NCBI RefSeq assembly: GCF_000614585.1
Contig: NZ_BAKX01000002.1
Coordinates: forward strand, 186,001 to 250,000
DNA length: 64,000 nucleotides
Direction: 5' to 3'
From: Porphyromonas gingivicanis JCM 15907
GTDB lineage: Bacteria; Bacteroidota; Bacteroidia; Bacteroidales; Porphyromonadaceae
Part shown: piece by piece, positions 1,936-62,973 of the stretch
How the letters are laid out: each line of letters begins with the position of its first letter
Position numbering within the stretch: the first letter of the stretch is position 1
Notes under the pieces: generated by a model
The model's input: the letters and a program-made list of their open reading frames with translations, nothing else
Databases searched by the model: none
What the model was told of the DNA's origin: nothing
Made by a program: the position numbers and the translations under genes

Positions 1936-3287
1936 ATGGCAATGACTTGGAAGAATCTTCTGTCCGATATGCGTTTGGGTAAAGAGGACGAGAGGCGCAA
2001 TATCACCGTCCTCTCCTCTGGGGCAGGGCGCAGTTCCGACTTCGAGAGAGATTTTGACCGTCTGATTTTTTCAGCACCCTTTCGGCGTTTGCAGAACAAA
2101 GCGCAGGTCTTTCCCTTACCAGGCAATGTATTTGTACATAATAGGCTCACACACAGCTTAGAGGTGAGCTGCGTGGGCCGTTCACTGGGCAATAATATCA
2201 CACGCCATTTGCAGCGCAAGTATGGGGCAGAACTCTTTGACCCTTTGGCAATTGCTCCATAGTATCTTCGGCTTGTTTGGCGCACGATATGGGTAATCCG
2301 CCCTTTGGGCACAGTGGCGAGCGGGCTATTTCGAGTTACTTTGCCGATGGACCTGGTAAGCAGTGGGAGGAGCAGGTGCGCCGTGAGGGCGGACGCTGGG
2401 ACGACTTCCTCCACTTCGAGGGCAATGCCAATACGTTCCGTCTGCTCACGCACCAGTTCGAGGGGCGTCGCAAGGGGGGCTTCGGACTCACTTACACTAC
2501 GCTGGCTTCGGTGGTTAAGTATCCTTTTTCCTCCACGGCGGGGCAGAAGAAGGGCAAGTTTGGCTTCTTTGAAACCGAGCAAAATACCTTTCGCACCATT
2601 GCAGACCATTTGGGGTTGATTTGCTTTGAAGAGGAACCTTTGCGCTATGCTCGCCATCCGTTGGTCTTTTTGGTAGAGGCGGCAGACGATATTTGCTACC
2701 AGATAATGGATTTGGAGGATGCCTGCAAACTTCGACTTTTGGGTTATCAAGAGGTGATACAACTGATGTTGGACTTTTTCTCCGAGGAGGAGCAGAATCA
2801 TATCCAAGCTATTGCCGATAGTATCCACGACAAGAATGAGAGCATTGCCTACGTGCGCTCTAAGGTTATCAATCTTTTGGTCGAGGAGTGTTCTGAAGCC
2901 TTCTTGCGCAACGAGGCTGCTATCTTGGAAGGTACCTTTCAAGGGGCTCTAATTAACGCTACTTCTGACCGATGCGCCAAGGCATACGAAAAGTCGAGCA
3001 AGATAGCTCGCCAACACATCTACGTTACTCAAGATGTAGTGGATGTGGAGCTGGCAGGGCATCGCATCTTCGAGGAGATTATAGACCGTATGATGTATGC
3101 ATTGCTCCACCCAGAGAACTCCTATTCGAAGACCTTCCTCAAGCGAGTTAGCAGTCAGTACAACACTAAGGCAGATCGCCTTTATGGCAAGATTCAGTGT
3201 ACGCTGGACTTTCTATCGGGGATGACGGACCTCTATGCACTCGACCTCTACCGCAAGCTAACGGGAATGAACCTCCCCGCTGTCTGA
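1936..3287 (+). CDS. dgt: dGTPase-like deoxynucleoside triphosphate triphosphohydrolase (frame broken at ~2254)
   Basis: HD-domain enzyme of the dGTPase family, which removes triphosphate from dNTPs in the cytoplasm. Visible metal-site motifs are RLTHSLEV (first His) and the HD pair in AHDMGNPPFGHSGE; the family's N-terminal SSAGRSSDFERDFDRLIFS-like region is also present as SSGAGRSSDFERDFDR. The frame stops at 2260 (LAIAP*), and the protein resumes in the next frame as SIVSSACLAHDMGN. One extra G at about 2254 restores LAIGSIVSSACLAHDMGN, giving ~450 residues, the normal family length. I treat it as one gene with a likely sequencing deletion. An actual frameshift would cut off the catalytic HD pair. 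Confidence 0.88.
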
Positions 3288-3539
3288 CTCTCATACCTTT
3301 CCGATTAGTAACGTTATCGGTTGCGAATGAAAGGGTGGGAGGGAGTCGTTAAAAGGATTAACCCTTTCGGAAGTTAGCACAGATGGTTACAAGAGTTTGC
3401 ACAGATGCTTTTGTTCGGAGGGTATATACCCTGCAATGCTACCTTCTTTACCTTTCTTGACGATATAGTTGAGTAGCTCTTTGTAAAGACTTTCTTACTC
3501 TCTTTGTAGAGCTTCTTGAGGATGGGGCAAACGTACTAA

Positions 3540-3570
3540 GGAGTAGGGCAAAACGCCCTGCTCCTTTTTC
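3540..3570 (+). terminator. Rho-independent terminator, 250 bases after dgt
   Basis: GGAGTAGGGC - aaaac - GCCCTGCTCC forms a 10-bp stem with one G-U pair, followed by TTTTTCTTTTTC. It is the first strong stop downstream of dgt. Confidence 0.7.
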
Positions 3571-3866
3571 TTTTTCTTTTTCGACAATCTCTATTATTCC
3601 CCTTTTTGATAGAGAGAAATGCTTCTTTCTTTTCTTAATAGGTGAGCTGTATTTGTTGTGAAAATGGATGGCTATAAGAAGCCGAAAGTAATGTGAGAAG
3701 CCAGTTCTTGCTACTTCTTTTTTTGTTAAAATAGCAAATAAGCCTCTATTCTTTTCTTTTTTTCTAACCCTAAAACCCTCTGTGATCCCATTAAAAAGTA
3801 TGGGTAAAAATCGGACATGAAAAATAAGGGTTTATTTGTTGATTATTAGTTGTTTATGAGGTTTTG

Positions 3867-3888
3867 ATGTCCGAAATTGACAGATTTT
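3867..3888 (+). repeat. 22-bp direct repeat, copy 1 (ATGTCCGAAATTGACAGATT...)
   Basis: Exact 22-base match to 3900-3921, centre-to-centre distance 33 bases with an 11-base spacer. The core ATGTCCGA also occurs inverted (TCGGACAT) at 3811-3818. It lies 240 bases before the LRR gene start. Confidence 0.75.
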
Positions 3889-3899
3889 GTACAGGAAGA

Positions 3900-3921
3900 A
3901 TGTCCGAAATTGACAGATTTT
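3900..3921 (+). repeat. 22-bp direct repeat, copy 2
   Basis: Second exact copy of the 22-base unit. The period of 33 bases is about three helical turns, so both copies would face the same side of DNA if bound by protein; this is inference. Confidence 0.75.
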
Positions 3922-4126
3922 TGGCAGAATTTGATAAGTGGATAATGGAAATAACTCCGAACTTTGCAAAATATAAAAGGAGTAATCTTTATGGATGCTC
4001 CTACGCAATGTCTTCCGATAATATCTTCAAAAGAACCATTGTGAGTGGGTGCTTTTGTGATTTTTGTAAAGGTCTTTTTTTAGACCGATATTTGGTGTGA
4101 AAAAAAGCAATGAAAATATAGTCAAA

Positions 4127-6540
4127 ATGAAAAAAGAAACTACTTTCCGGGGCTTATTTATAGTCCTTATGGTGCTACTCTCCTTTGGAGGAATGGAGGC
4201 GCAAAATCAGATTACGATGACAACAAGCAAGGCTGTCGGTGAAACCCTTGGTTTGAGTATTGAAGCCAATGGAGATTTTACTGTCGAGGGAGCAACCCTT
4301 GACAGTGGCACAGACTACACGCTAACCGCCACTGATGGACGTATTACCATTAAGGGCGATGTAATAGAGCTTTTTTGCAACAATAATACTCTCACACAGC
4401 TTGATGTAACCCAAAGCCCCAACCTCAAAGAATTGCGTTGCTGGAATAATCAACTCTCTGAGCTTGATGTTACCCACAACAAAGTACTTGAGACACTCTC
4501 TTGTCGTGGCAATCTTCTTACCCAACTCGATGTTCGACAAAACTCCAAGCTAAAAAATCTTGACTGTTCTTCCAACCAACTCTCTCAGCTTGATGTGAGC
4601 CAAAACCCTAATCTTACGGCTCTGTTCTGTAATATCAATCAAATTACGGAACTTGATATTAAACAAAATGTAGGGCTTAGCACGCTCTATTGTAATGATA
4701 ATCAACTCTCTCAGTTGGATGTTAGTATCAATACGCAACTTTATGCGCTCGACTGCTCTTTTAATCAACTCACCCAGCTCGATATTAGCAAAAATACGGG
4801 GCTTAGTACTCTCGAATGTTCCAGCAACCAGCTTACCCAGCTTGATGTCGAGAAAAATAAAGCATTAGTAACTCTTAAATGTGCTGGCAATCGACTCGCT
4901 CAGCTCGATATTAGCAAAAATACGAGGCTTAAGCACCTCAACTGCTCTGCCAATCTGCTTACTCAACTTGATATTGATCAGAATACGGAATTGCAGAGTC
5001 TGAAGTGCTCCTCCAACCAGCTTACTCAGCTTGATTTAAGCGCGCACACGGACCTACAGGAGCTTGATTGCTCTACTAATCGGCTGACTCAACTCAATGT
5101 GAGCGAAAGCAAAAATTTGAATGCTCTCTTTTGCTCTCAAAATGCGATTAGAGGGAGCGAAATGAATGCCCTCATAGCTTCTCTTCCTTACCGACATAGT
5201 TCTCTACGACAAGGTTTCTTTGGAGTAGTAAACTTTTCAACCCCAGATATAACCGAGGGGAATATCTGTACGAGAAAGCAGGTAGCTTCGATACGCTCTA
5301 AGAATTGGATAGCCTTGGAGCTTAAGAAAGACAATATAGTAGAATATGCAGGCAGTAAAGAGATAGGTAGTGGGGTCATCACGATGAAGACCAGCAAAGC
5401 TGTAGGAGAGAGTATCGACTTAGCCCTTGAGGTAGATGCAGACTTTGAGGTAGAGGGAGTGGCTGAAGGAGATGATGGCAACTACCTCCTTACAGACGAG
5501 GGTGGACGTATCACGATAAAAGGAGATGTAATCTCGCTCGACTGCTCTCAAAACCAACTTACCGACATTGATTTTAGCAAAAATAGTCGTTTGGAGCTAC
5601 TCCGTTGTAAGCAAAATCTCCTTAAGGGGGCGAAGATGGATGCCCTCATTGCCTCGCTTCCTGACCGAAGTAGTCAGGGTGTAAAGGGAGAGTTCAGGGT
5701 GGTAGATTTTTCAGACCCCGATTATCCAGAGGGCAATGTCTGCACTAAAAAGCAGGTGCAGATGCTTTGGCTCGTGGTTGGATTGCCAAAGAGTGGAAAG
5801 AGGACCTCGGAAGTTGGGTAGACTACACGGGAAGTGAAGAGGTTGGCAGTGGTGTAATTACGATGAAGAGCAACAAAGCCGTAGGTAGTAGTATCTACCT
5901 GTCTGTAGCAGAAGTCAATGGAGCTTTTGAAGTAGAGGGGGCAACTCATAAGAGCGATAGCGAATATACACTTACTAATACGGAGGGGCGCATTACTATC
6001 AAAGGAGATGTAGTTAAGTTCTTTTGTAGTGAAAATGAACTTACTCAGATCGATGTGAGCCAAAATGCAGAGCTCGTGCAACTTTGTTGCTCTGAAAACG
6101 AACTTACTCAGCTTGATGTAAGCAAAAATATAAAGCTCAATGAGTTAGATTGTTCTCAAAACCGCATCAAGGGGGAAAAGATGGATGCTCTTATCGCTTC
6201 GCTTCCTGACCGAAGCAATGAAGAGAAAAAAGGAAAGTTTGAAGTGATAGACTTCTCAGATGTTAGAAGTCCAGAAAGTAATGTTTGCTCTAAGAAGCAG
6301 GTAGCAACCGCCAAGACTCGAGGTTGGATTGCCAAAGAGTGGAATCCCAATGAAAAGAGTTGGAAAGACTACGAGGGTAGCGAAGATGTGTCTATCGACG
6401 ATGTTTTGGCGCAAGAGGAGGCTACTATTGTGGCGATATATAGTGTAGAGGGTCGTCGCCTTGCGGAGTTGCAAGAGGGGGTAAACATCATCCGCCTCAG
6501 CAATGGTAAGACTCGCAAAGTGCTTCACCGCATCAAGTAG
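4127..6540 (+). CDS. InlJ-like leucine-rich-repeat surface protein with T9SS sorting domain (frame broken at ~5758)
   Basis: Secreted protein of about 804 residues. I start at ATG 4127, which gives a clean signal peptide (MKKETTFRGLFIVLMVLLSF...GGMEAQ); an in-frame GTG at 4097 adds ten residues. Three modules each open with an ITMxxxKAVG beta segment and a GRITIKGDVI strand, then carry 21-residue leucine-rich repeats of consensus LxxLxCSxNQLTQLDVSxNxx with a conserved Cys: about 13, 2 and 3 repeats. Each module closes with MDALIASLPDR...VDFS...GNVCTKKQV. The Cys-bearing 21-residue repeat is the InlJ type known from Listeria and P. gingivalis InlJ. The last ~55 residues (IVAIYSVEGRRLAELQ, ending in a basic NGKTRKVLHRIK tail) resemble a type A T9SS sorting domain, so cell-surface attachment is predicted. 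One missing G at 5758 splits module 2 from module 3; restoring it gives KKQVADALARGWIAKEW, matching the module 3 end. Confidence 0.82.
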
Positions 6541-8780: not shown

Positions 8781-9796
8781 ATGAAAATAGCTATTGTAGG
8801 AGCTTCTGGAGCAGTCGGAGGGGAGTTTATACGTCTTATAGAGGAACGCCACTTTCCCGCAGATGAGATTCGCCTGTTTGGCTCTTCACGAAGTGCAGGG
8901 CGTAGCTACACGATACAGGGCAAAACCTGTGTGGTAGAAGAGTTGTGCGATAATGATGCTTTCAAAGATATAGATATTGCTTTTGTATCGGCAGGGGGAG
9001 ACACTTCCAGAGCCTATGCCTCTACCATTACTCGATATGGCACCTTGATGATAGACAATTCTTCGGCCTTTCGTATGGAGTCAGATGTACCTCTGGTGGT
9101 CCCCGAGGTAAACCCCGAAGATGCTCTTACTACGCCACGCCATATCATAGCCAACCCTAACTGCTCTACCATACAGATGGTGGTGGCACTCCATGCTTTG
9201 AATAAAATTACTCCACTCAAAGAGGTGCATGTAGCTACCTACCAAGCCGCGAGTGGGGCAGGTAATCTTGCTATGGAGGAACTTCGTGAACAGGTCCGTT
9301 CGGCAGCCGAGGGCGCACCTTTAGAGGTGCAGAAGTTTGCCCATCAATTGCTCTACAATGTGATACCGCATATCGATAAGTTTGATCAGGACGACTATAC
9401 CAAAGAGGAGCTTAAAATGCACTACGAGACTCAGAAGATTTTGCACAGCGATATATCGGTCAGTGCTACCTGTGTGCGAGTCCCTGTACTACGTGCCCAC
9501 AGTGAAGCTATTTGGGTACGTGGGGAGCGAGCTATCTCTCCCGAAGAGGCACGTCGAGCCTTTCATTCCCAAGAGGGACTGGTGGTGGTAGACGATCCTA
9601 AGATGTTGGAGTATCCGATGCCTCTCTTTGTGGCAGACAAAGACCCTGTATATGTGGGGCGCATCCGTCGAGATATAGCCCACGATGGAGGTATTACCTT
9701 CTGGTGTGTGGCAGATCAAATCCGTAAGGGGGCAGCCTCAATGCCGTGCAGATAGCCGAGTGGCTCATCGAACACAAAGGGATAACAAAAAAATAA
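8781..9796 (+). CDS. asd: Aspartate-semialdehyde dehydrogenase (frame broken at ~9737)
   Basis: Converts aspartyl phosphate to aspartate semialdehyde with NADPH, feeding lysine/diaminopimelate, threonine and methionine synthesis. The N-terminal Rossmann motif is [11 protein letters not shown]; the catalytic Cys lies in [11 protein letters not shown] and a conserved region [10 protein letters not shown] follows. The frame ends early at 9755 with a non-native SMPCR tail. Adding one C near 9737 restores [20 protein letters not shown] and a natural stop at 9796, giving ~338 residues, the usual length. Because asd is needed for peptidoglycan, a sequence error is the likely cause. DUF5063 and exonuclease genes follow closely. 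Confidence 0.92.
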
Positions 9797-11128: not shown

Positions 11129-12647
11129 ATGCAAGAAAAAATATTGATACTTGATTTTGGTTCACAAACTACGCAACTCATTGGCCGTCGTATTCGTGAC
11201 CTCAATACCTATTGTGAGATTGTGCTACAACAAATTACCTGAAAATATCGAGGATGTGCGTGGGGTAATTCTTTCGGGTAGTCCCTACTCGGTCTATGAC
11301 CCTAAGGCTTTTCGCATTACTCTAAACGAGCTACGAGGTCGCTTCCCTCTCTTGGGTATTTGCTATGGTGCACAGAGTTTGGTATATCAAGCTGGTGGTA
11401 AGGTAGAGCCTTCGGAAACGAGAGAGTATGGTTCTTCTCAGCTTAACCTATTGGCCCCAGAAGACCCCCTTCTGAAAGGACTCTCTCCGAGAAGCACTGT
11501 ATGGATGTCGCACGGCGATACCATTACTGAATTACCTCAAGGCTTTACCACAATAGCCTCTACCGATCAGGTAACGCATGCAGCTTACCGCATAGAGGGC
11601 GAGCTAACGTGGGGCGTTCAGTTTCATCCTGAAGCGTTTCATAGTGCAGAGGGGGTACGCCTCTTAGAGAACTTTATCAATATTGTTGGCATTGCAGGCA
11701 ATTGGTCGCCCGATGCTTTCATTGAACGCTCGGTAGTAGAGCTTCGTGAGCAGTTGGGCAACGATAAGGTACTACTGGCACTTAGTGGAGGAGTAGATAG
11801 CTCTGTGGTAGCAGTTTTACTTCACCGTGCTATTGGTAATAATCTCACTTGTATCTTCGTAGACCATGGTTTACTCCGTAAGGGTGAGGCAGAGCAGGTA
11901 CTCGAAGATTATCGTCACTTGGGGCTTAATGTAATTGGGGTAGATGCGCATGAGCAATTCTATACAGCACTTGAGGGTGTTGCAGACCCCGAACAGAAGC
12001 GCAAAATTATCGGTAAAGGCTTTATTGATGTGTTTGAGGCAGAGGCTTCGAAGTTGCAAGGCATCAAATGGCTTGGTCAGGGCACTATCTACCCTGATAT
12101 TATCGAGTCTATCAATATAACAGGCATGGTTATTAAGAGCCACCATAATGTAGGCGGTCTTCCAGAGCGTATGAAGCTCAAGTTGGTAGAGCCTATCCGT
12201 ACTCTTTTCAAAGATGAGGTGCGCCGAGTGGGGAAAGCGCTTGGTATGCAGGCTCATCTTTTGGAGCGTCACCCCTTCCCCGGTCCCGGTTTAGGCATAC
12301 GTATCTTGGGGGCTGTTACGCCCGAAAAGGTGCGCATATTGCAGGAGGCAGACCATATCTATATGAGCGAGATGCGCAAGCAAGGACTCTATAACTCGGT
12401 CTGGCAGGCGGGAGCTATCCTTCTCCCCGTCAAGTCGGTAGGTGTGATGGGAGATGAGCGTACCTATGAGTACACCATTGCTCTCAGAGCAGTAAATAGT
12501 GTAGACGCTATGAGTGCCGACTGGACACGTTTACCTTATGAGTTTTTGGCAAAAGTCTCTAACGAAATTATCAATAAGGTACGTGGTGTGAACCGTGTAG
12601 TGTACGATATTTCCTCTAAACCACCCAGTACAATTGAATGGGAGTGA
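11129..12647 (+). CDS. guaA: GMP synthase (glutamine-hydrolysing) (frame broken at ~11225)
   Basis: Converts XMP to GMP with glutamine and ATP. The glutamine amidotransferase half shows [19 protein letters not shown], the Cys nucleophile in LLGICYGAQ, and the His/Glu pair in QFHPEA. The ATPase half has the PP-loop [11 protein letters not shown], and the dimerisation domain ends with the signature [13 protein letters not shown]. The frame that starts at ATG 11129 stops after [10 protein letters not shown]; two missing C residues near 11225 would restore [19 protein letters not shown] and join the rest, giving ~507 residues. The protein is normally required for growth without guanine, so error is the likelier explanation. 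A TACCTTTG -7-like element lies at 11102-11109. Confidence 0.93.
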
Positions 12648-21109: not shown

Positions 21110-21236
21110 AAGGAAATAGATTAGTGTATTGTTTGTAATAGTCTCTAAATAAAATTGTTCGTTGAGATAGAGAGATGAGTGCAGACTCTTTGCAGACTAC
21201 CGCCATTCTGTTGCTCATACAACTGCCTATCCTGCG

Positions 21237-21244
21237 CAAAGGTA
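21237..21244 (-). promoter_or_regulatory. Possible -7 element (TACCTTTG) before the propeller lipoprotein
   Basis: Full match to TAnnTTTG on the minus strand, but no good TTTG at the -33 distance. It would leave a leader of ~127 bases before the start codon. Confidence 0.35.
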
Positions 21245-21301
21245 ATACTATAATGAGACTTGCTTTCTATCTCATAACACTCCTGAAATGCAGAGCCGAT
21301 G

Positions 21302-21874: not shown

Positions 21875-21938
21875 ATTTGTACGTTTGTTATTTCTTGGTG
21901 TGTTATGAATAGACTTTTTAGAATTCTTGTAATGGTTC

Positions 21939-24047: not shown

Positions 24048-24215
24048 CAAATTCAATCGGCAGTCTATGGTGGTTTGTGGAGCAAAGTAGGATCGGAGCG
24101 TGACGATGTAAAATTACTGCTTTTATCTTCGACCTTACTACCTTACCTTATTCTACTCTTTGGGGGATCTCTTAGCTCTTATATTACCCCCCCATCGAAA
24201 GGTATATACCTATTG

Positions 24216-29214: not shown

Positions 29215-29342
29215 CTTTTTATTTCTGGATTGAAAGTGGAGCAAGGCTTATGCTCTCTGTCTGCAATAGTAGCAATAGAGCTAACATAAGAGGGTAGAGC
29301 GAAGCACTCCTTGTGTGGTGTTGAATGATGAATAAAAAGGTT

Positions 29343-30151
29343 TTAGTCAACAAGAGAATCGTAGAAATCTTGGAATTTCTGTACATTCTCTTTCAAGTCT
29401 CCAGGGTACTCTAAAATCGGTTTATTGCACTCTTTGGCATACTCCAATAGAGCCGATTGAGCGATCTTTTCGGGCATAACTACACCATCACAGTGAGCTA
29501 TCGCCATACGACGAACAGCCTCTGGCGTATAAGCTCCGTTCATAGGAGCTACAAGCTCATTTTCTATACCATCGAAGTGCAAAGCTCCATGATTTTTTCT
29601 GATAGCTCGCCCTCTTCTTCCTTCTCGAAAGGAGAGTAAACAATCTTAGCTTTACTGAAGCAGGGATCATCCTTGTAGATTGTTTTCAGGTAAGCTGGCG
29701 CAAGTGCCCCAAACCATCCCACGCAGTGAATAACGTCGGGTATCCAGCGGAGCTTCTTGATGGCTTCGAAAACACCATGTACGAAGAAGATAGAGCGGTC
29801 CGCTGTATCGTTGCCATACTTCTCTTCGATGCCAAATTGGGATTTGCGTTTGAAAAACTCATCGTTGTCGATAAAGTAGACTTGTATACGAGACTGTGGT
29901 ACAGAGGCCACTTTAATGATGAGCGGATAGTCGGTGTCATTGACGATAATGTTGATGCCTGAGAGGCGAATAACCTCGTGCAATTGATGACGACGCTCAT
30001 TGATAAGCCCGTAACGTGGCATAAAGATCCGCACATCGCTACCGTTCTCTTGGATGCGTTGAGGTAACCACCGAGAAAAAATCCCCATAGGAGTTTCCTC
30101 CAAATAGGGAGTAATCTCTTGTGATATATATAGAATTCTTTTTTGGCTCAT
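29343..30151 (-). CDS. Glycogen/starch synthase-like protein, catalytic N-terminal domain only (frame broken at ~29587)
   Basis: About 270 residues from ATG 30151. The N-terminus KRILYISQEITPYLEETPMG followed by a Rossmann-like GT5 domain fits the glycogen synthase catalytic family, but the C-terminal nucleotide-binding half (~200 residues) is absent, as in the short form common in Bacteroidales that is often found beside panC. Glycosyltransferase activity is therefore doubtful. The frame breaks after SEKIM; one missing G near 29587 joins it to ALHFDGIENELVAPMNGAYT, which supports a single gene. A full consensus promoter lies just upstream at 30180-30211. Confidence 0.78.
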
Positions 30152-30179
30152 AATGCGCAACTATATTTAGTGATAGAAG

Positions 30180-38895: not shown

Positions 38896-41800
38896 ATGAG
38901 TATATATAGTGCTGCCGTCAAGAAACCCATTACAACGATACTGATATTCGTTGCTGTGGTTATATTAGGGCTCTTCTCTTTGCAGAAGTTGCCGATAGAC
39001 CTCTACCCCAATATAGAGTTTGGGCGTATCATTGTATTTACCTCTTATCCGGGTGCAGGACCAACGGACGTAGAGGCGAACGTAACCAATCCTATCGAAA
39101 ATGTTTTGAATGGGATTGCCAATCAGAAACACATCACCAGTGAGAGCCGAGAAAATGTTTCTATCGTAACCATCGAGTTCAATGAGGGGAGCGATATGGA
39201 CGTAGCTACGAACGATGTACGAGACAAGTTGGGGCTTTTAACCGAATCGCTCCCTGATGGCGTGCGAGACCCAATGCTCTTTAAGTTCAGTGCCGACGAT
39301 ATTCCTATCCAAATACTTGTAGCTACAGCCGAAGAGAGTACCACAGGGTTGGATAAGATATTAGAAGAAAAAGTGGTTAATCCGATTGGTCGTATCGATG
39401 GTGTGGGGAGTGTATCCTCTTCGGGTACTATTAAACGACAGATACAGGTCTACTGTGACCCTACTGCCCTCGAAGCCTACGGACTAAGCATACCGCAGAT
39501 AAGTTCCATTATACGGGCAGAAAATAGCAACACGCCTGCTGGACAAATCACCATTGGTAACCAGACCAATTCTATACGAGTACAGGGAGAGTTTGCCGAC
39601 CCCTCTGAACTCGAAAACATAGTTATAGCCAGTAGAGGAGGACAGAACATATACCTCCGAGACGTAGCACGAGTGGAAGACACCATAGCCGAACAGATGC
39701 AGGAGGCTTACAATAATGGCGAACGCAGCGCTCTGATTATTATCAATAAGCAGAGTGGTGCTAACTCCGTTTCCATATCCAATAAGATTACCGAGCTACT
39801 CCCAAAACTTGAGCAGTCGCTCCCCAGTGATGTAAAGCTCTCTTCGGTAATGAATACTGCCAACTATATTGAAGATACCATTTCGAGCCTTACGAACACT
39901 ATCTTTATCACTTTCGTGGTAGTCATCTTTGTGGTGCTGCTCTTTTTGGGTAGATGGCGAGCTACTTTTATTATTATACTTACCATCCCTATCTCACTTA
40001 TCGGCTCCTTCATCTACCTAATGCTAACGGGTAATACTCTCAACATTATTTCGATGAGTTCGCTCTCTATAGCCATCGGTATGGTGGTAGACGATGCGAT
40101 TGTGGTTTTGGAGAATATTACCACCCATATAGAGCGAGGCAGTTACCCTAAACAAGCTGCCACACATGCTACTAATGAGGTAGCTATCTCGGTTGTAGCC
40201 TCTACTCTTACGATGCTTGCAGTATTCCTCCCTCTCACAATGCTCGGAGGTATGACGGGTATTATGTTTCAGCAGTTAGGGTGGATTGTAAGTATCATTA
40301 TGATTATTTCTACCATCGGAGCACTTACCCTAACTCCTTCGCTCTGTGCACACATATTGCGCCGTAAGCAGAAGAAAGAACGTCAAGAACTCAATCGCAT
40401 ACAACGATCTATTGAATCGGCTCTCTCATGGACCGAAGAGATATATGCTCGCTCTCTTAAGTGGGCATTAGGACACCGCACGCTCACTATCCTTTTGGCG
40501 ATACTCATCTTTGGAGGTTCTATTATATTAGGTTCTACCATTAAGACAGAGTTTATGCCGCAAAATGACAACTCTTCTATGACGATGCGTATAGATCTAC
40601 CTTTGGGTACGAGTATCGACCTGGCACGTGAAAAAGCTTATGCTTACCAAAATGTGGCAAGAAAAGTATCCTGAAATAAAGAATTGTAACCTAACAGTAG
40701 GTACTGCCGATGCGGGCAATGCTTTTGCCACTCTTTCGGGAAGTGGTAATAATGTGCTGCGCTACAACATAGGCTTTGTAGATGCTTCGGAACGAGATAG
40801 GAGTATCTATGCCATAGCTGACTTGATGCGTGAAGACCTTGCCAATACCCCTGGCATTAACACCTATGTGGTTACCCCCGGAGCAGCAGGTAGGAGGGCA
40901 GACGGCTGTAGCGGTGGAAATCTATGGTTACGACTTTGAAAAGACCAATCAAACAGCAGCTAAGGTACAAGAGGCTCTCAAGAAACGTCCTTCTTGCTCG
41001 GAAGTCAATAACGACCGTAGCAAAGATATGCCTGAATATCGTATGGAATTTGACCGCAAAAAACTGGCTGAACATGGACTCAACATCTCCACTGCTGCCT
41101 TGATGCTCAATAATAGCGTTATGGGTAACCTTGCCTCCTATTATAGAGAGGCAGGTAATGAATATGAGATACGTGTGCGTTTGGCTCCCGAATATCGCCG
41201 TTCGCTCGAAGATATGAACAATATTTTGGTAGCCACCCCCACAGGGGCTGCAGTACGCTTGGGCGATTTGGGAACGCTGAAAGAGTACTTTACTCCCCCT
41301 TCTATCAAGCGTAAGGATAGAGAGCGCGTGGTAACTCTTGCTATGGTAGCGGCAGAGGGAGTGCCTCTCTCCGATTTGGTGAAGGATGCCAACGAAGTGC
41401 TCAAGAATACCGAAATGCCTGCTGGAGTAACCTATAAGATTTCGGGAAGCTATGAACAGCAACAAGAGGCTTTTGGCGATCTGACGATACTCTTACTCCT
41501 TATTTTGGTTTTAGTATATATCGTTATGGCGGCGCAGTTTGAAAGTATGTTCGACCCCTTTGTGATAATGTTTTCCGTACCCTTTGCTTTTACAGGTGTT
41601 ATTATAGGGTTAGCTCTCACTCGCGTACCATTGAGTATTATAGCCTTTATTGGAGCTATTATGTTGGTAGGTATTGTGGTGAAAAATGGTATTGTACTCA
41701 TCGACTACGCTCGCTTGGGTAGAGAGCGTGGATTGGGTGTGCGTCGAGCCATTATGCAGTCTGGCAAATCTCGCTTGCGTCCAGTACTTATGACCACACT

Positions 41801-42002
41801 GACCACCGTACTCGGTATGGTACCTATGGCTATCGGTATTGGCGAAGGAAGCGAAACGTGGCAACCTATGGGAGTTACCGTTGCATTTGGTCTCTCTATT
41901 TCTACGGGAGTTACGTTGATTTTAATTCCTACCATTTATGCATCTCTCTTGGGTAGACGTGTCAGACGTGCTCGAAGAGCCTTCCAAAGACGGAGAGTGT
42001 AA
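38896..42002 (+). CDS. RND-family efflux permease (frame broken at ~40631-40650 and ~40890)
   Basis: Inner-membrane proton-driven exporter of about 1,035 residues, the usual size. N-terminal helix ITTILIFVAVVILGLFSLQKLPIDLYPNIE, porter domain, then a helix bundle with the proton-relay motif GMVVDDAIVVLENI (Asp pair), and a second half with TLTTVLGMVPMAIGIGEG and the LVGIVVKNGIVLIDYAR segment. Two breaks split it: near 40631-40650 (one extra A in an A-run or two missing; homologous text resumes as MWQEKYPEIKNC) and near 40890 (two bases missing; resumes as GGQTAVAVEIYGYDFEKT). A real double frameshift that restored the frame this way would be unlikely, so it is treated as one gene. It could pump drugs, bile salts or metals. 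Confidence 0.9.
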
Positions 42003-42033: not shown

Positions 42034-42335
42034 ATGGAATCACAAAAGATAGTTTTCATTAGTTTCAATCAGGCCCTTCATGGACTTGTCATCAAGGCTT
42101 TGAGCCGTCTCAATCTAAAGGGATACACCAATGGGAGGAAATTCAAGGGGCGGGGTCTCACACGGGTAATCCCCATTTGGGCACCCACGCATGGCCTACT
42201 CTCAATGGGGCTCTCTTGGTAGCATGCTCCGAAGAGCGTGCACATAAGCTCTTAGATGCTTTAGCAGAGATTGATAGGGAAAATCCGTTGCAGGGTTTGC
42301 GAGCTTTCCTGTGGAGTGTGGAGCGAAGCATATAA
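42034..42335 (+). CDS. Small PII-like protein encoded after the RND pump (frame broken at ~42128)
   Basis: About 100 residues. The first part, MESQKIVFISFNQALHGLVIKALSRLNLKGYT, is clear; one missing C near 42128 restores QWEEIQGAGSHTGNPHLGTHAWPTLNGALLVACSEERAHKLLDAL and a natural end at LRAFLWSVERSI. The beta-alpha-beta fold and the SHTGNPHLGTHAWP loop recall PII/CutA-like proteins seen next to RND genes in Bacteroidetes. It may sense a ligand and modulate the pump, but that is speculation. It is 31 bases after the permease stop and belongs to the same operon. Confidence 0.7.
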
Positions 42336-46988: not shown

Positions 46989-47359
46989 GGTAGTAAGTAG
47001 AGGGTGGTAAATAGTCTCGTAATAGCATCGAAAGTTCGGCTCTCTCGGATAGAGGGGGGCGGGTTTTTGGTTGTGTCACAGAAGGGTAAAGGACATCCTT
47101 TATAACTATCCCCAAAGAGGGGTGAAAGAACTCTTTTACTACTACCCCTGTTATAGAATAGTACTCCTTCGTTTTGGAGATTTTGTACTATACAGTAATG
47201 TCGTTACATTTGTGTCAGCAAAAGAGAGTTAAACTGCTATTATTGTATAGCACAAGTTTGCTAAAAGGTTCCTTGACACTCTTTGAGGGTATGGACCTGC
47301 TCTTTTTGGCAGTAGAAAAGTGTTTTGTGAGTTAATACACCAACATAAAAAGAAAAACT
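46989..47359. other. Gene-free stretch with promoter for the 47.4 kb lipoprotein
   Basis: 371 bases with no gene. A full-consensus promoter is at 47182-47212. Otherwise nothing is recognised. Confidence 0.6.
47182..47212 (+). promoter_or_regulatory. Bacteroidetes-type promoter
   Basis: TTTG at 47182-47185, a 19-base spacer, and TACATTTG at 47205-47212: full match to both elements. The lipoprotein start codon is ~147 bases downstream, so the leader is long. Confidence 0.75.
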
Positions 47360-47859
47360 ATGAAGAAGATTATTTCTATCTCTTTGGGGCTTGTTGCCTC
47401 ATCACACTTTTAACTCTAACAAGCTGTGAGAAGAAAAAGCAAGAACCTATGTTGCCCAATCAAAAAATTGATCTTATGGGCACTGTTTGGGACGGAGAGT
47501 ATAAGCAGTACGATGGGGAGTTGAAAGATTATCGAAAGCTTAATGTAAGAGTGGTATTCTATGATAGTGACACCACCCAAAATAGGGAGGATTACTTAGC
47601 AACCTTTAGAGTATTTGGAGGAGATGTTAAGGACGGAGAGGATAAAATCGTGGATGTCCTTATCAAAAAGAGCAGAAATGTTATAGTCGTTACTCACAAA
47701 AAGAGTGCAAATTCTTCTGTTTTTGAAGGGCGATGGATAATACATACTCAGAACTCTGAACAGATATCTATGCAGAAAGAGCCAGAGTATTTCGATAAAA
47801 CAGACTTCTTTGATCTCAAGAGAGTTACCAGAGGAGATATCGAAGGCACCCTCTTCTAA
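47360..47859 (+). CDS. Lipoprotein of unknown function (frame broken at ~47397)
   Basis: About 166 residues. ATG 47360 gives MKKIISISLGLVA, then the frame is lost; one missing C near 47397 restores MKKIISISLGLVALITLLTLTSC, a perfect lipoprotein signal peptide, followed by EKKKQEPMLPNQ and a lipocalin-like small domain (MGTVWDGEYKQYDGEL ... FEGRWIIHTQNSEQISMQ). Without the fix the frame lacks any sensible start. It has its own consensus promoter and terminator, so it is a single-gene unit. I do not recognise a family name. Confidence 0.7.
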
Positions 47860-47935: not shown

Positions 47936-48072
47936 GTGTATGGACTCATCTGTTGTAGCCTCTCTTAAGGGGGATAAAAGGCTTTACTTGGGAGGGTCAT
48001 GGCATAGAGACTATTGGTCAGAAGTTTTATTTAGTGTACTATTGCAGGCGCAAAGAAAAACATCTAACCGAT

Positions 48073-49196
48073 ATGCCTACCCGTTTGATAGCCGATGCCT
48101 CACTCCCCTACATAAAAGGGGTGTTAGAGTCCGTGGCAGATATTATCTATTTGCCCTCGCAAGAGATAACTCGAGCAAGGATTATAGCCGAGAGAGCCGA
48201 AGGCTTGCTCATTCGTAGTATTACCCGATGCGATTCGCTCTTTTGGAAGAAACCCCTATTCGATTTATAGCTACAGCAACGGCAGGTTTTGACCACATAG
48301 ATGCTTCCTACTGCTCAGCACACGGGATAGAGTGGCACAATGCTCCTGGATGTAATGCTCGAGGTGTAGCACATTGGGTGCTATGCGCACTCTCTTGGAT
48401 GGCGATACAACAGGGCCGTCCCCTTAGAGAGGAGCGTTTGGGTATCGTAGGGGTGGGTAACGTGGGGCGAAACCTCTTGCAGATGGCGGAGGTGGTCGTA
48501 GGTGAAATCTTATTGTGTGATCCCCCAAGAGCAGAGCGAGAGGGAGAGGCAGACTTTCACTCTTTGGAGCATTTGGCGGAGCATTGTTCTCTTCTCTCTT
48601 TCCACACACCACTAACCCGAGAGAAGCGTTATGCAACGCATCATCTCATCAATTCAGAATTACTCGCACGCTGTTCTCCACGAACTATTGTTCTCAACGC
48701 TGCCCGAGGGGGAGTAGCGACAGTCAAGCCCTTCTCGAAGCTCTAAAAATGGGAAGAGTGGGGAGCGCAATGATAGACTGTTGGGAGGGAGAGCCCTATA
48801 TAAAAGAAGAGTTATTGCCCTTTGTAAGTTATGCAACACCGCATATTGCGGGTTTTTCAGCCGAGGGAAAAGCTCGTGGTTCTCGTAGTGTATTGGAGGA
48901 TACTCTCCGCTTTTTTGGTTGGGAGGGGGTTGATTTATCAAGAATCAAAGTGCCTGAATTGGAGCATCCTTTCATTACCATTCCTTCAGAACACCCTTTT
49001 TGGCTAGAAGAAGTATTCTTACAAACTTCCCACACTATTCGTCAAACCGAAGTTTTTTGCGCAAAATCCTTCAGATTTCGAGTTGCATCGAGTAAACTAC
49101 CCCTTTCACAGAGAACCCGAGGCATATATCGCCATAGGGGGAAATGCTTATCAACGAGAAGTCTTACAGCGGATAGGATTTCGCATCCCAACATAA
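48073..49196 (+). CDS. pdxB: Erythronate-4-phosphate dehydrogenase (frame broken at ~48237, ~48719 and ~49053-49066)
   Basis: Oxidises 4-phosphoerythronate with NAD in pyridoxal phosphate synthesis. Restored protein is ~374 residues, typical of PdxB. It starts MPTRLIADASLPYIKG, continues as FIATATAGFDHID and the Rossmann motif LGIVGVGNVGRNL, the LNAARGGV ... AMIDCWEGEP catalytic segment, and the PdxB-specific C-terminal dimer domain (NPSDFELHRVNYPFHREPEAY ... LQRIGFRIPT*). Three breaks separate these parts: one G missing near 48237, one G near 48719, and two bases (T-run 49053-49058 and A-run 49063-49066) near 49060. So many breaks in one gene could be decay, but each is a simple homopolymer loss and the codons between look intact; sequencing error is favoured, pseudogene possible. 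Confidence 0.78.
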
Positions 49197-49407
49197 CTCA
49201 ATGTCTATCGTTTCTTTTTTGAACTTTTGTGAGTTTTTTCTATTTATCAATGGGTAGCAGTGTCGTCGCTTTTTAGTACTTTAGTGGACTGAATAAACTA
49301 CTTCTCGTGGAGAGCCTGTACTGTGTTTTCTTAGAGGGAGAGCAATATGCTTTTCGCCCTCTAAAAAGAAGAGGTAGCAACGTACTGCTTAGTAGTAAAA
49401 AAGAGGT

Positions 49408-52447: not shown

Positions 52448-53740
52448 ATGAAATCTATTCTATATATCTTTCTCGCCATGATTTTGGCGTTATCTTCTAT
52501 AACTTTATCAGCACAAACTAAGTCGAAAAAGGTGCAAAATCTCGAACGTCAGCGCAAGGCTGCTATGGAAGAGATACAGAAGACCAATAAGGAACTGAAC
52601 AAGATTAGCAAGGATAAGTCCAAGAAGCAGAAAGAGGTCAATTTATTGAAGAAAAAGGTCGGTCAGCGTCAGAAAGTAATAAACCTCTTGGATGCCGAGA
52701 TTAAAGCCCTCAATGGAGATATAGATTCGCTTCAACGGCAGGAAAAATACCTAAAAGGAGAAGAAGAGCTACGTAAAGAGGCTTATGCTCGCTCGGTAGT
52801 AGCATTACAACATAGGAAATCTACCACCGACCCTATGCTTTTTGTGCTTTCGTCAGAGGCCTTTGATCAGGCGGTAAGGCGAATGCGTTTTGTATCGCAA
52901 TATGCGTTGGCTCATCAGCAGGCTTCCGCTCAATTGAAAGAGACTCGTTTGGCTTTAGAACAAACTCGTTTTTCTATCGAAGCGAACAGAAACAACAAAT
53001 CGACCCTTTTGGTGCAACGAGAAAAGGAGTGCAATCTCTTACAACAAGAGCAGAAACAGCGCATCTCTGAGGTGCAACAGCTTCAAGGAAAGGAAAAAGA
53101 CCTCAAAGCCCTTCGTCGTAAACAACAGCAACAAATAGCCACACTAAACAAAAAGATCGAGCAACAAATTGCTTTTGAAATAGCCGAAGCAGAGCGCAAG
53201 GCTCGTGAAGAACAAGAAAGACGGGCTCGAGAGGCTGCCGCACGAGGTGAGAAAGCCCCAATTGTCGAAGAGCGTAAGGCGGCTACCAAGGGAGGTTATC
53301 CAATGACCGCAGAGGAGCGCAAATTGGGAGGTAGTTTTGCACAAAACAAAGGTAACCTACCTGCTCCTGTTAATAACAATTACCAAATAGTTGGACGCTT
53401 CGGTGTGCAGCAACACAATCAATTAAGTAAAGTGCAGACCAACAATAATGGAATTGATTTAGAAGTCCCCAATGGCACCAGTGCGCGGGCTGTCTTTGAT
53501 GGTGTTGTTACCTCTGTTTTTGTGATAGAAGGAGCTAAAGTGGCTGTCATTATTCGCCATGGTAACTACCTTACCGTTTATTCAAACATAACTAATGTGG
53601 TCGTAAAGAAGGGGCAGAAGGTCAAGGCGCACCAACCTTTGGGACGTGTAGCTGTAGACAGCTTTTCCAACAAAGCGATTCTAAACTTCCAAGTGTGGCA
53701 CGAGCGCACCAAGCAAAACCCAAGTTCATGGATACGATAA
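52448..53740 (+). CDS. EnvC-like murein hydrolase activator
   Basis: 430 residues: signal peptide (LAMILALSSITLSAQ), a long coiled coil (residues ~25-270, rich in Lys/Gln/Glu) and a C-terminal LytM/M23-like domain (~residues 310-425). The zinc ligands of active M23 peptidases are missing: the first His motif is NNGIDLEVP and the HxH is FQVWH, so the domain is probably inactive and acts, like EnvC, by activating amidases during septal splitting. It shares 13 bases with ribF and lies 12 bases after DUF4292. Confidence 0.87.
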   Translation: MKSILYIFLAMILALSSITLSAQTKSKKVQNLERQRKAAMEEIQKTNKELNKISKDKSKKQKEVNLLKKKVGQRQKVINLLDAEIKALNGDIDSLQRQEKYLKGEEELRKEAYARSVVALQHRKSTTDPMLFVLSSEAFDQAVRRMRFVSQYALAHQQASAQLKETRLALEQTRFSIEANRNNKSTLLVQREKECNLLQQEQKQRISEVQQLQGKEKDLKALRRKQQQQIATLNKKIEQQIAFEIAEAERKAREEQERRAREAAARGEKAPIVEERKAATKGGYPMTAEERKLGGSFAQNKGNLPAPVNNNYQIVGRFGVQQHNQLSKVQTNNNGIDLEVPNGTSARAVFDGVVTSVFVIEGAKVAVIIRHGNYLTVYSNITNVVVKKGQKVKAHQPLGRVAVDSFSNKAILNFQVWHERTKQNPSSWIR

Positions 53741-54704
53741 AATTGATTCGCACCGAAGAGGGTATCTCTTTACCCAAAGGTGTGGCACTCGCAGGCCCCG
53801 TAGTTGCGACTATGGGAGTGTTTGATGGGGTGCACTTAGGACATAAATATCTAATCAATTGCCTTAAAAACGAGGCAAAAAAAGCAGGTCTTCATTCTGC
53901 TATTATTACTTTTGATCAACCCCCAATTGCGGTGGTTCGCCCCGATGTACCCTACGAAAAGCTCCATTCAGAAATAGAAAAATTGGAGCATCTTATGGCT
54001 ACAGGGGTCGATTATGTTGTTGTTTTACCTTTCGATCCTCCTTTGGCAGCTCTCTCAGCAGAGGAGTTTTGCTCCAGTATATTGGCAAAGGTACTGAGGG
54101 TAAAAAAGCTTCTCATGGGGTATGATCATAATTTCGGACGTCCGCCACAAAAGGGAGCTCCTCGCACGGACTATCACACCATCGGTGCATGCTATGGTAT
54201 AGAAATACTCCCCCAAGATCCTATCTATGACAAAGAGTTAGGATTGCCTTATAGTTCCAGTTCTGTGCGCAAGTTGTTGCGAGAAGGCTCTTTAACTACT
54301 GCCAATCGTTTCTTGGGATACCCTTACTGCCTAAGAGGTTCTGTAGTAGGAGGGTTGGGTTTAGGACGTAAGTTCGGCTATCCAACTGCCAATATCTCTT
54401 TAGAAGATAGTCACAAACTTATCCCTCCCCATGGTGTGTATGCTGTTTGGGTAACTATCGAGGGGCAACGCTATGGTGGTATGCTTTACATTGGCAGACG
54501 CCCCACTATTGCAGATGGACTTGAGGAGAGTATCGAGGTAAATATATTTGATTTTATGGGCAATCTTTATGATGCTAAACTTTCGATCGATTGATAGCCC
54601 ATACAAGAGGAGAGATGCGTTTCGATACACACCAAGAATTAGTAGCTCAAATCGATAGAGACTTCGAGGAAGTACACATGATATTGACAACAGCAACCTG
54701 TTAA
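53728..54704 (+). CDS. ribF: Riboflavin biosynthesis protein RibF (FAD synthetase/riboflavin kinase; frame broken at ~54591)
   Basis: Bifunctional enzyme making FMN and FAD from riboflavin, ~325 residues. The N-terminal nucleotidyltransferase has VATMGVFDGVHLGHKYL and MGYDHNFG; the kinase domain has GLGLGRKFGYPTANIS. ATG 53728 is chosen; a codon upstream lies deeper in the EnvC-like gene. The frame ends at 54594 after AKLSID. One missing T near 54591 restores LIAHTRGEMRFDTHQELVAQIDRDFEEV and a stop at 54704, the normal C-terminus. Confidence 0.93.
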
Positions 54705-60709: not shown

Positions 60710-60782
60710 GCCTCTTGTCGGATTCGAACCAACGACCCCGAGATTACAAATCACGTGCTCTGGCCAACTGAGCTAAAGAGGC
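60710..60782 (-). tRNA. tRNA-Thr (anticodon TGT)
   Basis: 73 nucleotides that fold into a standard cloverleaf: acceptor GCCTCTT / AAGAGGC, D-loop with AGCTCAGTTGG, anticodon loop TTTGTAA (anticodon TGT reads ACA), and T-arm GGTTCGAATCC. The CCA end is not encoded. It is read directly after the SRP RNA (5 bases between) on the minus strand. Confidence 0.96.
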
Positions 60783-60787
60783 ATACA

Positions 60788-60882
60788 GGTGAGCAACCTA
60801 CATCGCACCGCTACGACCTACTACCCTTGCTGCGATCAAGCCCTGGGGGATTCACAGGGAGCTGGTCGTGTAGGACTCACCC
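60788..60882 (-). ncRNA. ffs: Signal recognition particle RNA, small bacterial (4.5S) type
   Basis: About 95 nucleotides. The ends pair (GGGTGAG with CTCACC), inner helices CCTAC/GTAGG and ACGACC/GGTCGT follow, and the domain IV core shows CAGG on one side and AGCA on the other, the symmetric loop that binds Ffh. The apical loop between them (GC-TTGATC-GC) is not the usual GGAA tetraloop. Preceded by TACTTTTG, a -7 element, 6 bases before the 5' end. Confidence 0.85.
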
Positions 60883-60887
60883 GAGTG

Positions 60888-60918
60888 CAAAAGTACTACT
60901 TTTTTTGATATCTGCAAT
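60888..60918 (-). promoter_or_regulatory. Promoter for SRP RNA and tRNA-Thr
   Basis: On the minus strand: ATTG (one mismatch to TTTG), 19 bases, TACTTTTG (full match). The RNA begins about 6 bases after the -7 element. Confidence 0.6.
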
Positions 60919-60949
60919 ATCTTCTTTCAAAAAAGGCTCTCTTTTTTAT

Positions 60950-62140
60950 TTATGAACGGATAATACCATTGGCTACAAAGACTTTATGTAACGCATTTAT
61001 AGCGAAGTCCAACTGTTCCTTGGTGTGGGTAGCCATCAGACTGAAGCGAATGAGCGTATCTTCGGGGGGAACTGCAGGAGAAACTACAGGGTTTACAAAG
61101 ACCCCCTCTTGGAAAAGATCGCGCGTTATGCAGAAAGTAGCCTCATTGTTTCGGATGAAAAGGGGGATAATAGGCGTAGAAGTATTGCCTATTTCGAATC
61201 CTAATGAACGGAAGCGGTCAAGGGCATAATGGGTAAGTTCCCAAAGACGTTCGAAACGTTCAGGTTCAGAAAGCATAATATCCAAAGCTGCATTGGCAGC
61301 TGCTGTAGAAGCAGGTGTACAACTGGCACTAAAGATATAACTGCGAGCATGGTGACGAAGGTAGTTGATAAGCACTTTGTCGCCTGCCACGAAACCTCCA
61401 AGTGAAGCAAACGATTTGCTGAATGTACCCATAATAAGGTCTACATCTTGACTAAGTCCATAGTGATGGCAAACCCCTCGTCCACAGTCGCCCAGCACTC
61501 CTATACCATGTGCCTCATCGACCATCAAAGTTGCTTTGTATTTCTTAGCCAAACGTACTATTTCGGGTAGATTACAAATATCTCCCTCCATAGAAAAGAC
61601 GCCATCTACAACAATGAGGATTATTTTACCTGGAGTACATTGCTTTAATCGACGCTCCAAAGAAGCCATATCATTGTGTTTATACTTGAGCTTAGTACTA
61701 TAAGTCAAACGCATTCCCTCAATGATAGAAGCGTGGTTAAGCTCATCCCAAATGATATAATCCTCTCTCCCCGTAAGGATAGAAACCACCCCTAAGTTTA
61801 CCTGAAAACCTGTCGAGAAGATAATTGCATCGTCTTTACCTAAAAACTCAGCCAATCTTTTCTCTAAAGCGATATGACTGTCTAAAGTTCCATTTAAGAA
61901 ACGGCTACCAGCACATCCAGTACCATATTTTTCGGTAGCCTCGATGGCTGCTTTCTTAAGAATAGGATGGTTTGTAAGCCCTAAATAGGAGTTAGAGCCA
62001 AACATAAGCACCTTACGCCCATCAATAATCACTTCCGTGTCTTGTTCGGACTCTATCTTACGGAAATAGGGGTATATCCCCATAGCTTGAGCTTCTTGAG
62101 GGGCCGTATAGGAGGCCAATTTTTCTTGGAGTATTTTCAT
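60950..62140 (-). CDS. spt: Serine palmitoyltransferase (alpha-oxoamine synthase family)
   Basis: 396 residues from ATG 62140 (MKILQEKLASYT). PLP-dependent enzyme condensing serine with a long-chain acyl-CoA to 3-ketodihydrosphingosine, first step of sphingolipid synthesis. The family motifs are present: FGSNSYLGLTNHP, GTGCAGSRFLNGT, the Asp of the PLP pocket in LMVDEAHGIGVLG, and the PLP Lys in GTFSKSFASLGGFVAG. Bacterial relatives are often annotated as 8-amino-7-oxononanoate synthase or glycine C-acetyltransferase (Kbl); the pattern and the lineage favour SPT, as in P. gingivalis PG1780. It starts 52 bases after rnc. Confidence 0.85.
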   Translation of the reverse strand: MKILQEKLASYTAPQEAQAMGIYPYFRKIESEQDTEVIIDGRKVLMFGSNSYLGLTNHPILKKAAIEATEKYGTGCAGSRFLNGTLDSHIALEKRLAEFLGKDDAIIFSTGFQVNLGVVSILTGREDYIIWDELNHASIIEGMRLTYSTKLKYKHNDMASLERRLKQCTPGKIILIVVDGVFSMEGDICNLPEIVRLAKKYKATLMVDEAHGIGVLGDCGRGVCHHYGLSQDVDLIMGTFSKSFASLGGFVAGDKVLINYLRHHARSYIFSASCTPASTAAANAALDIMLSEPERFERLWELTHYALDRFRSLGFEIGNTSTPIIPLFIRNNEATFCITRDLFQEGVFVNPVVSPAVPPEDTLIRFSLMATHTKEQLDFAINALHKVFVANGIIRS

Positions 62141-62191
62141 ATTACTATTATTACACTGTAAGAAGTTACTACTTCTTAAGTACAATTTGGG

Positions 62192-62973
62192 TTAATTGGT
62201 CGAAGAGGGAGGGGCAGATTTTTTACGAAGAACTGCCAGCGCATGCTTAGCAGCCACCTGCTCAGAACCTTTTTTAGTAGAACTTTTTCCTTCCCCTAAA
62301 GCAACGCCATCTACATACACTCGGGAGACAAAAGTACAATGAGGACCTGGATTGTGGTGTACGAGACGGAAATCTATCTCTATCTTTTCTTTAAGTCCCC
62401 ACTCAAGTAACTTATTTTTAAAGTTGATACCTAAGTCGGGGTTTTCCTGATTGATTTCTTCAAAAATAGAAATCATCTTTTGGCGAACAAACCTCTCTGC
62501 TTGCTCAAAACCCTTGTCCAAAAAGATAGCTCCTACAATAGCTTCTAAAGCATTGCCCAAAGCATCTTTTGCCAAAGGGTTGTTTTTATTCTTAATAAGT
62601 ACTTTATCTATACCTATTCGCTTGGCAATGGAGTCTCCAATCTCTCGAGACACAATGCGTGCTTTCTTCTCAGACATTGGCCCTACGAGCTGTCGGGATA
62701 CTTCAAATAGAGATATTTGGAAACAATAGCCCCAATGACACTGTCTCCCAAAAACTCTAAACGGTCGTTATCCTTTTGATTAGAATGCCTTTGCGCTCCT
62801 GTTTGATGGCAAGAAGGGTCTATAAGAGCCAAGCGATAGTATTCCTTATTGCGAATACTAAAATCCAGAATACTCTCCAACACAGCCCAATTTGGCTCGT
62901 TCTTCTTCTTCCTAAATTTACCAAAATAGTTAGAGGAAAAAAAGTTCAAAACCGTCGCCCAATTCATAGACAA
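62192..62973 (-). CDS. rnc: Ribonuclease III (frame broken at ~62696)
   Basis: Double-strand-specific endoribonuclease, ~260 residues when joined. The catalytic domain carries the signature NDRLEFLGDSVIGAIV and later the acidic NALEAIVGAIFLDKG; the C-terminal dsRNA-binding domain is visible (FKNKLLEWG ... ALGEGKSSTKKGSEQVAAKHAL). The frame stops after KYPDSS; one missing C near 62696 restores KYPRQLVGPMSEKKARIVSREIG and joins the two domains. fabF lies upstream on the same strand, the common acpP-fabF-rnc order. A hairpin with a 10-bp perfect stem (63015-63056) precedes it. Confidence 0.92.

What the first reader, a model, noticed from the sequence alone, without database searches (positions are those of the whole stretch)
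1936..62973. About 16 reading-frame breaks in 13 otherwise intact genes
dgt (~2254), the LRR gene (~5758), asd (~9737), guaA (~11225), DUF4270 (~28107), the glycogen-synthase-like gene (~29587), the metal TonB receptor (~31647), the RND permease (~40640, ~40890), the PII-like gene (~42128), the 47.4 kb lipoprotein (~47397), pdxB (~48237, ~48719, ~49060), ribF (~54591) and rnc (~62696) each split into frames that rejoin when one or two bases are added, mostly in short G, C, T or A runs. The codons on both sides stay protein-like. Several genes are normally essential. That points to consensus error in the data (for example long-read data without polishing); other explanations are mass gene decay or programmed frameshifting.
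Basis: partly seen in the sequence, partly recalled or inferred. Interest (0 to 1): 0.7.

Follow-up and report, generated by a model that had tools for sequence, protein, structure and literature searches.

The report
Missing-base errors in a draft assembly
The broken genes in this stretch of a Porphyromonas draft genome are most likely errors of the sequence data, not real damage: nearly one in four of the genes compared is broken, conserved genes no less than others, and near-identical unbroken versions of two of them exist elsewhere in public data.

Summary
The breaks are in the sequence. Proteins of the nearest held relative (Porphyromonas circumdentaria by inference) confirm 14 of the 16 listed breaks in 11 of the 13 genes; the LRR break has indirect support and the 47.4 kb break stays open. 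The window is not special: in 49 stretches (1.0 of 2.05 Mb) of its own assembly, 93 of 405 compared genes carry 112 breaks. The reverse comparison gives 2 breaks in 245 genes, apparently mirror images of forward ones. Breaks fall on genes like a Poisson process, spare no conserved genes, and broken genes are not under weaker constraint. Of 104 placed breaks, 95 lack one base, 7 lack two, 2 have one extra. Near-identical unbroken ribF and dgt proteins exist elsewhere. This is selection-blind base loss, most likely long-read consensus error. A GCY/RGC context is stronger: 58 of 102, 28.3 expected. An artefact, useful mainly as a caution.

The parts
1936..3287 (+). dgt (dGTP triphosphohydrolase), frame break near 2241-2256
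   Evidence: Relative's 450-aa protein matches in two pieces, frames 1 and 3; NCBIfam TIGR01353 on the second piece; unbroken near-identical 450-aa protein P0202 elsewhere
4097..6540 (+). LRR (internalin-J-like) gene, probable break near 5758-5824
   Evidence: LRR paralogues match frame 2 before and frame 1 after; LRR_4 on the first piece; no orthologue found in the relative's fetched stretches
8781..9790 (+). asd (aspartate-semialdehyde dehydrogenase), break near 9734-9737
   Evidence: aa 1-319 in frame 3, aa 319-end in frame 2 with 16 of 19 identical; TIGR01296
11120..12647 (+). guaA (GMP synthase), break near 11224-11226
   Evidence: Relative's 509-aa protein in two pieces, 97% and 96% identity, two frames; NF000848
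27815..29244 (-). DUF4270 gene (NCBIfam match to the BamH family), break near 28075-28105
   Evidence: Two pieces in two frames; PF14092; NF053687 below its cut-off
29346..30160 (-). glycogen/starch-synthase-like gene, break near 29585
   Evidence: Relative's 272-aa protein in two pieces, aa 1-192 and 193-272, in different frames; PF08323
30760..33008 (-). TonB-dependent outer-membrane receptor, break near 31632-31653
   Evidence: Relative's 749-aa protein in two pieces in two frames; Plug on one piece and barrel on the other
38896..42002 (+). RND efflux permease, two breaks near 40631-40638 and 40845-40906
   Evidence: Relative's 1036-aa protein in three pieces in three frames; PF00873 on the first piece, NF033617 on two pieces, below its cut-off
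42034..42332 (+). PII-like / PG0541-family gene, break near 42117-42174
   Evidence: Relative's 100-aa protein in two pieces in two frames; NF045581 below cut-off on a piece
47287..47859 (+). 47.4 kb gene (weak BSAP-5i immunity family match), break claimed near 47397
   Evidence: Not confirmed: open frame with a lipobox-like stretch before any in-frame ATG; weak NF053773 match; no match in the relative
48031..49222 (+). pdxB (4-phosphoerythronate dehydrogenase), three breaks near 48237-48240, 48710-48719, 49062-49069
   Evidence: Relative's 389-aa protein in four pieces over three frames; NF001309 on two pieces, below its cut-off
53695..54701 (+). ribF (riboflavin kinase/FAD synthetase), break at about 54591
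   Evidence: Relative's 336-aa protein in two pieces; unbroken near-identical 336-aa protein P0082 matches them at 99.3% and 100%
62192..62973 (-). rnc (ribonuclease III), break near 62662-62689
   Evidence: Relative's protein in two pieces in two frames; TIGR02191 on both pieces, below its cut-off

Best explanation
The frame breaks are most likely consensus errors of a draft long-read assembly that dropped single bases, so the living cells likely carry these genes unbroken. Shown: the breaks exist, occur across the sampled half of the genome at about one per 4 kb of compared coding sequence, are almost all base losses, fall on genes at random, and are nearly absent when this genome's reading frames are laid on the related species; near-identical unbroken ribF and dgt proteins exist in other public data. 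Inferred: that the bases were lost in base calling or consensus building (not by mutation), that the data are nanopore-type long reads, and that a short GCC/GCY context is where the caller or a modified base causes the loss.
For: Genome sample: 112 breaks in 93 of 405 genes over 451,677 aligned bases, 0.248 per kb; the window's share is 11 in 46,509. Reverse control: 2 breaks in 245 genes, both apparently mirror images of forward events by their coordinates. Random over genes: 312/75/17/1 genes with 0/1/2/3 breaks, Poisson expectation 310.8/78.9/13.2/1.9; most conserved quartile (90-100% identity) 0.286 per kb, least conserved 0.155. Constraint: median ratio of amino-acid to four-fold-site divergence 0.256 in 93 broken and 0.314 in 311 unbroken genes, 404 of 405 usable. 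Loss bias: 102 of 104 placed breaks. Unbroken near-identical proteins: P0082 (336 aa; pieces 99.3% and 100%; longest contig 26,773) and P0202 (450 aa; pieces 98.0% and 100%; longest contig 29,023). Genes normally essential (guaA, asd, ribF, as recalled) are broken together. GCY/RGC within 4 bases of a loss in 58 of 102, expected 28.3, p=7e-10. Published example long-read assemblies had 23.3% pseudogenes, falling to 5.6% after correction, with false deletions the majority of indels (PMC12007338, abstract and section 6); here 93 of 405 is 23.0%.
Against: No reads are available, so the errors are inferred. Homopolymers, the usual site of long-read errors, are at most mildly favoured, and the tests disagree: lost base in a run of 2+, 3+, 4+, 5+ in the relative 56, 27, 7, 1 of 95, expected 43.4, 18.4, 7.2, 2.6; a run of 4 or more in the junction interval 17 of 53, expected 11.4; runs of 3 or more left in the assembly within 4 bases of a placed loss 16 of 102, expected 33.9 (a loss itself shortens a run, so this count leans low). 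Runs of 6 or more are only mildly rarer than in the relative. 18 in-frame stops inside pieces in 12 of 405 genes, 11 of them in genes without a break, were not all resolved.
Confidence: 0.95

Rival explanations
1. Mass gene decay: the lineage is losing genes, and the breaks are real inactivating mutations.
For: Nearly a quarter of the compared genes are broken, as in a decaying genome; 18 in-frame stops were also seen.
Against: Breaks are no rarer in the most conserved genes and are Poisson over genes; broken genes show no relaxed constraint; near-identical unbroken ribF and dgt proteins exist elsewhere; guaA, asd, ribF and rnc would all be lost together; in-frame stops are few (18) beside 112 breaks, and the two window genes that show one look like a shadow ORF and an over-extended start (inference).
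Confidence: 0.02
2. Programmed ribosomal frameshifting or transcriptional slippage: the breaks are real and are bypassed during expression.
For: Coding potential continues on both sides of each confirmed break; the lost base lies somewhat more often than expected in a run of 2 or 3.
Against: The relative has the confirmed genes in one frame; near-identical proteins are unbroken for ribF and dgt; no excess of runs of 4 or more at the lost base, 7 of 95 against 7.2 expected; pdxB would need three events and 93 of 405 genes at least one.
Confidence: 0.01
3. Strain mixing in a metagenome bin: reads of several strains were merged and indel differences between them became broken frames.
For: The assembly has 35 contigs, those fetched running from 500 bases to 475 kb, and 5.39% contamination.
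Against: Real strains rarely differ by frame-breaking indels in conserved genes (established knowledge); 102 of 104 placed changes are losses with a preferred short sequence context, which mixing would not give.
Confidence: 0.02

Closest known systems
Gene-fragmenting indel errors in nanopore assemblies (Kastor, PMC12007338; abstract and section 6 read)
   Same: Similar share of broken genes (23.3% pseudogenes there, 93 of 405 = 23.0% here); false deletions the majority of indels; broken frames dispersed among normal genes
   Different: There deletions sit mostly in homopolymers of 2-8, commonest at 4-5; here runs of 4 or more show no excess at the lost base and a short GCC/GCY context stands out
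Modification-mediated nanopore errors (PMC10687267; matching passages read)
   Same: Systematic errors with a short sequence context, not homopolymers
   Different: There the errors are mainly mismatches at defined five-base motifs (GCAGC, GCTGG); here they are deletions, and no motif longer than about GCCYY emerged

Membership tests
Long-read consensus indel artefact | Breaks spread over the whole assembly at an even rate, not confined to some genes | tested here: met
   38 of 44 stretches with compared genes have a break; chi2 50.2 over 41 stretches; Poisson over genes. About half the genome sampled
Long-read consensus indel artefact | Strong bias to single-base loss | tested here: met
   95 of 104 placed breaks one base lost, 7 two lost, 2 one gained
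Long-read consensus indel artefact | Independent copies of the same species are unbroken | tested here: met
   Both genes searched for, ribF and dgt; 11 other genes of the window not tested this way; same species inferred from identity
Long-read consensus indel artefact | Enrichment in homopolymer runs | tested here: inconclusive
   Mild excess of runs of 2-3 at the lost base, none of 4 or more; 17 of 53 junctions with a run of 4+, 11.4 expected; below expectation next to placed losses. Context errors without runs are also known (PMC10687267)
Long-read consensus indel artefact | Reads disagree with the consensus | not testable with these tools
   No reads held
Pseudogene decay | Relaxed constraint in broken genes | tested here: not met
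   Ratio 0.256 broken (93) vs 0.314 unbroken (311), p=0.01 in the opposite direction
Pseudogene decay | Conserved genes spared | tested here: not met
   0.286 per kb in the most conserved quartile, 0.155 in the least
Programmed frameshifting | Break conserved in relatives at a slippery site | tested here: not met
   The one relative compared has the confirmed genes in one frame; no excess of runs of 4 or more at the lost base

The most novel reading that the evidence does not exclude
The missing bases are a footprint of an uncatalogued DNA modification in this Porphyromonas: bases at GCC/GCY contexts disturb the base caller, so the error map of the assembly is a crude methylome.
Probability: 0.15. 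Interest if true: 0.35.

Novelty: not a real feature. Interest (0 to 1): 0.1.

Why it matters
Gene content, pseudogene counts and absence calls from this genome should not be trusted: if the sampled rate holds, several hundred genes would look broken (inference). The context result suggests that homopolymer-only polishing would not remove these errors. It has no bearing on the biology of the 13 genes.

Tried and rejected
Homopolymer explanation: tested at junctions, at placed losses and against the relative's run lengths; at most a mild part. Known methylation sites GATC, CCWGG, GGCC and GCNGC near placed losses: 1, 1, 0 and 0 of 102, no excess; AGCT 10 against 2.3 expected is taken as part of the GCY excess. 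Longer motif around GCC in the relative: nothing beyond one weak position. Plasmid records: no match for the first 24 kb. Papers: four searches on long-read errors and Porphyromonas long-read assemblies (1 of 1, 10 of 18, 9 of 9 and 12 of 80 papers listed) showed none that seemed to be about this assembly; the search on BSAP immunity (5 of 17 listed) was seen as a listing only; PMC8575027 as an outline with abstract only.

Limits of the counts: the 889 query ORFs come from 1.2 Mb of the relative's 2.0 Mb; 405 had a match of at least 60% identity and 100 bits in the sampled half of the window's genome, the other 484 were dropped. The reverse control used only the first sample. The pipeline undercounts: in the window it finds 11 breaks because ORFs under 120 aa, short tails and one shadowed ORF are left out. 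For placement 2 of 112 breaks (RND permease) were left out and 6 were ambiguous. One search failed on masked letters and was rerun. That the two reverse-control breaks mirror forward ones is read off their coordinates. Two annotation scans used selected pieces only (10 per call).
Full report
Setting. The window is bases 186001-250000 of contig C34 of an unnamed 2.05 Mb, 35-contig genome (completeness 88.5%, contamination 5.4%). A Bacteroidales small SRP RNA lies at 60783-60889.

Observation. Proteins of the relative were compared with the window by tblastn without joining any pieces. dgt, guaA, DUF4270, the glycogen-synthase-like gene, the TonB receptor, the RND permease (two), the PII-like gene, pdxB (three), ribF and rnc each match in consecutive pieces in different frames. 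The asd tail lies in another frame, 16 of 19 residues identical. That makes 14 of 16 breaks in 11 of 13 genes. The LRR gene has only paralogues in the relative's fetched stretches, matching frame 2 before and frame 1 after the claimed site. The 47.4 kb gene has no match in the relative and one distant match among 40 other genomes, so that break is open.

The window is ordinary for its genome. In a first sample, 228 genes gave 63 breaks in 50 genes. With more stretches, 405 genes (451,677 aligned bases, 49 stretches including the window, 1.0 Mb) gave 112 breaks in 93 genes, 0.248 per kb; 38 of the 44 stretches that hold compared genes have at least one. The reverse direction, ORFs of this genome (first sample) against the relative, gave 2 breaks in 245 genes; by their coordinates both are the mirror of forward events. 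The relative's genes are therefore essentially unbroken.

Selection does not see the breaks. Genes with 0, 1, 2 and 3 breaks number 312, 75, 17 and 1, against Poisson expectations of 310.8, 78.9, 13.2 and 1.9. The identity quartiles from least to most conserved have 0.155, 0.288, 0.260 and 0.286 breaks per kb. The ratio of amino-acid to four-fold-site divergence is lower in broken genes (0.256, n=93) than in unbroken ones (0.314, n=311; 404 of 405 genes usable). Real mutations in genes such as guaA, asd and ribF (normally essential, as recalled) would be purged.

Near-identical unbroken proteins exist elsewhere. A 336-aa RibF (P0082, a cluster of 33 member sequences, longest contig 26,773 bases) matches the window's two ribF pieces at 99.3% and 100%. 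A 450-aa dGTPase (P0202, 21 member sequences, longest contig 29,023) matches the two dgt pieces at 100% and 98.0%. An unbroken neighbour gene behaves the same way (P0001, 99.8%), which suggests the same species. The sources of these three are not shown; their contigs are shorter than the window's own contig (366,703 bases).

Nature of the change. Of 112 breaks, 2 (RND permease) were left out and 6 were ambiguous; of the 104 placed, 95 are one base lost, 7 two lost and 2 one gained. All four bases are lost (C 28, T 26, G 24, A 17). Homopolymers explain little, and the tests are mixed. In the relative the lost base lies in a run of 2 or more at 56 of 95 sites (43.4 expected, p=0.006), 3 or more at 27 (18.4, p=0.02), 4 or more at 7 (7.2), 5 or more at 1 (2.6). 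Junction intervals hold a run of 4 or more in 17 of 53 cases (11.4 expected, p=0.05). In the assembly itself runs of 3 or more within 4 bases of a placed loss are below expectation, 16 of 102 against 33.9, partly because a loss shortens a run. The context signal is stronger: GCY/RGC lies within 4 bases in 58 of 102 against 28.3 expected (p=7e-10), and in 51 of 86 against 25.6 where no run of 3 is near. In the relative's own sequence the strongest context is GCCYY, 25 of 95 against 5.5 expected, the best of 1032 patterns ranked. No longer recognition motif was found. The compared genes hold 25,808 GCY plus RGC sites, so only a small share is hit.

Reading. Even, selection-blind base loss with a base-calling-like short context and unbroken near-identical proteins elsewhere is most likely consensus error of long-read data. 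Published example long-read assemblies show the same scale, 23.3% pseudogenes before correction and 5.6% after, with false deletions the majority of indels (PMC12007338, abstract and section 6), but there homopolymers dominate. Modified bases are known to cause nanopore errors at short motifs (PMC10687267, passages), mostly mismatches. The platform of this assembly is not known to me. The low completeness and raised contamination would fit split marker genes (inference).

Against. No reads could be examined. 18 in-frame stops inside pieces lie in 12 of 405 genes, 11 of the stops in genes without a detected break. Two of these genes are in the window and are probably a shadow ORF and an over-extended start (inference); the rest were not resolved. 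Mass decay and programmed frameshifting are contradicted by the tests above.

Noticed in passing
47287-47859: Gene with a weak match to the BSAP-5i immunity family (24.2 bits, cut-off 150), not found in the relative G024 and found, distantly, in 1 of 40 other genomes.
   Followed up: partly
27815-29244: The DUF4270 gene matches NCBIfam's BamH beta-barrel-assembly family (99.7 bits on one piece, below the cut-off of 670).
   Followed up: no
19943-24056: A TonB-receptor-like gene, an unnamed gene and a DUF5074 gene with no DNA match in the relative, where one of its contigs ends.
   Followed up: partly
placed losses across the sampled G000 stretches: Single-base losses favour a short GCC/GCY context more than homopolymer runs; the cause is open.
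   Followed up: partly
G000 contigs C1-C10, C12, C15 (L088-L099): 12 of the small contigs fetched (500-1353 bases) read entirely as N.
   Followed up: no
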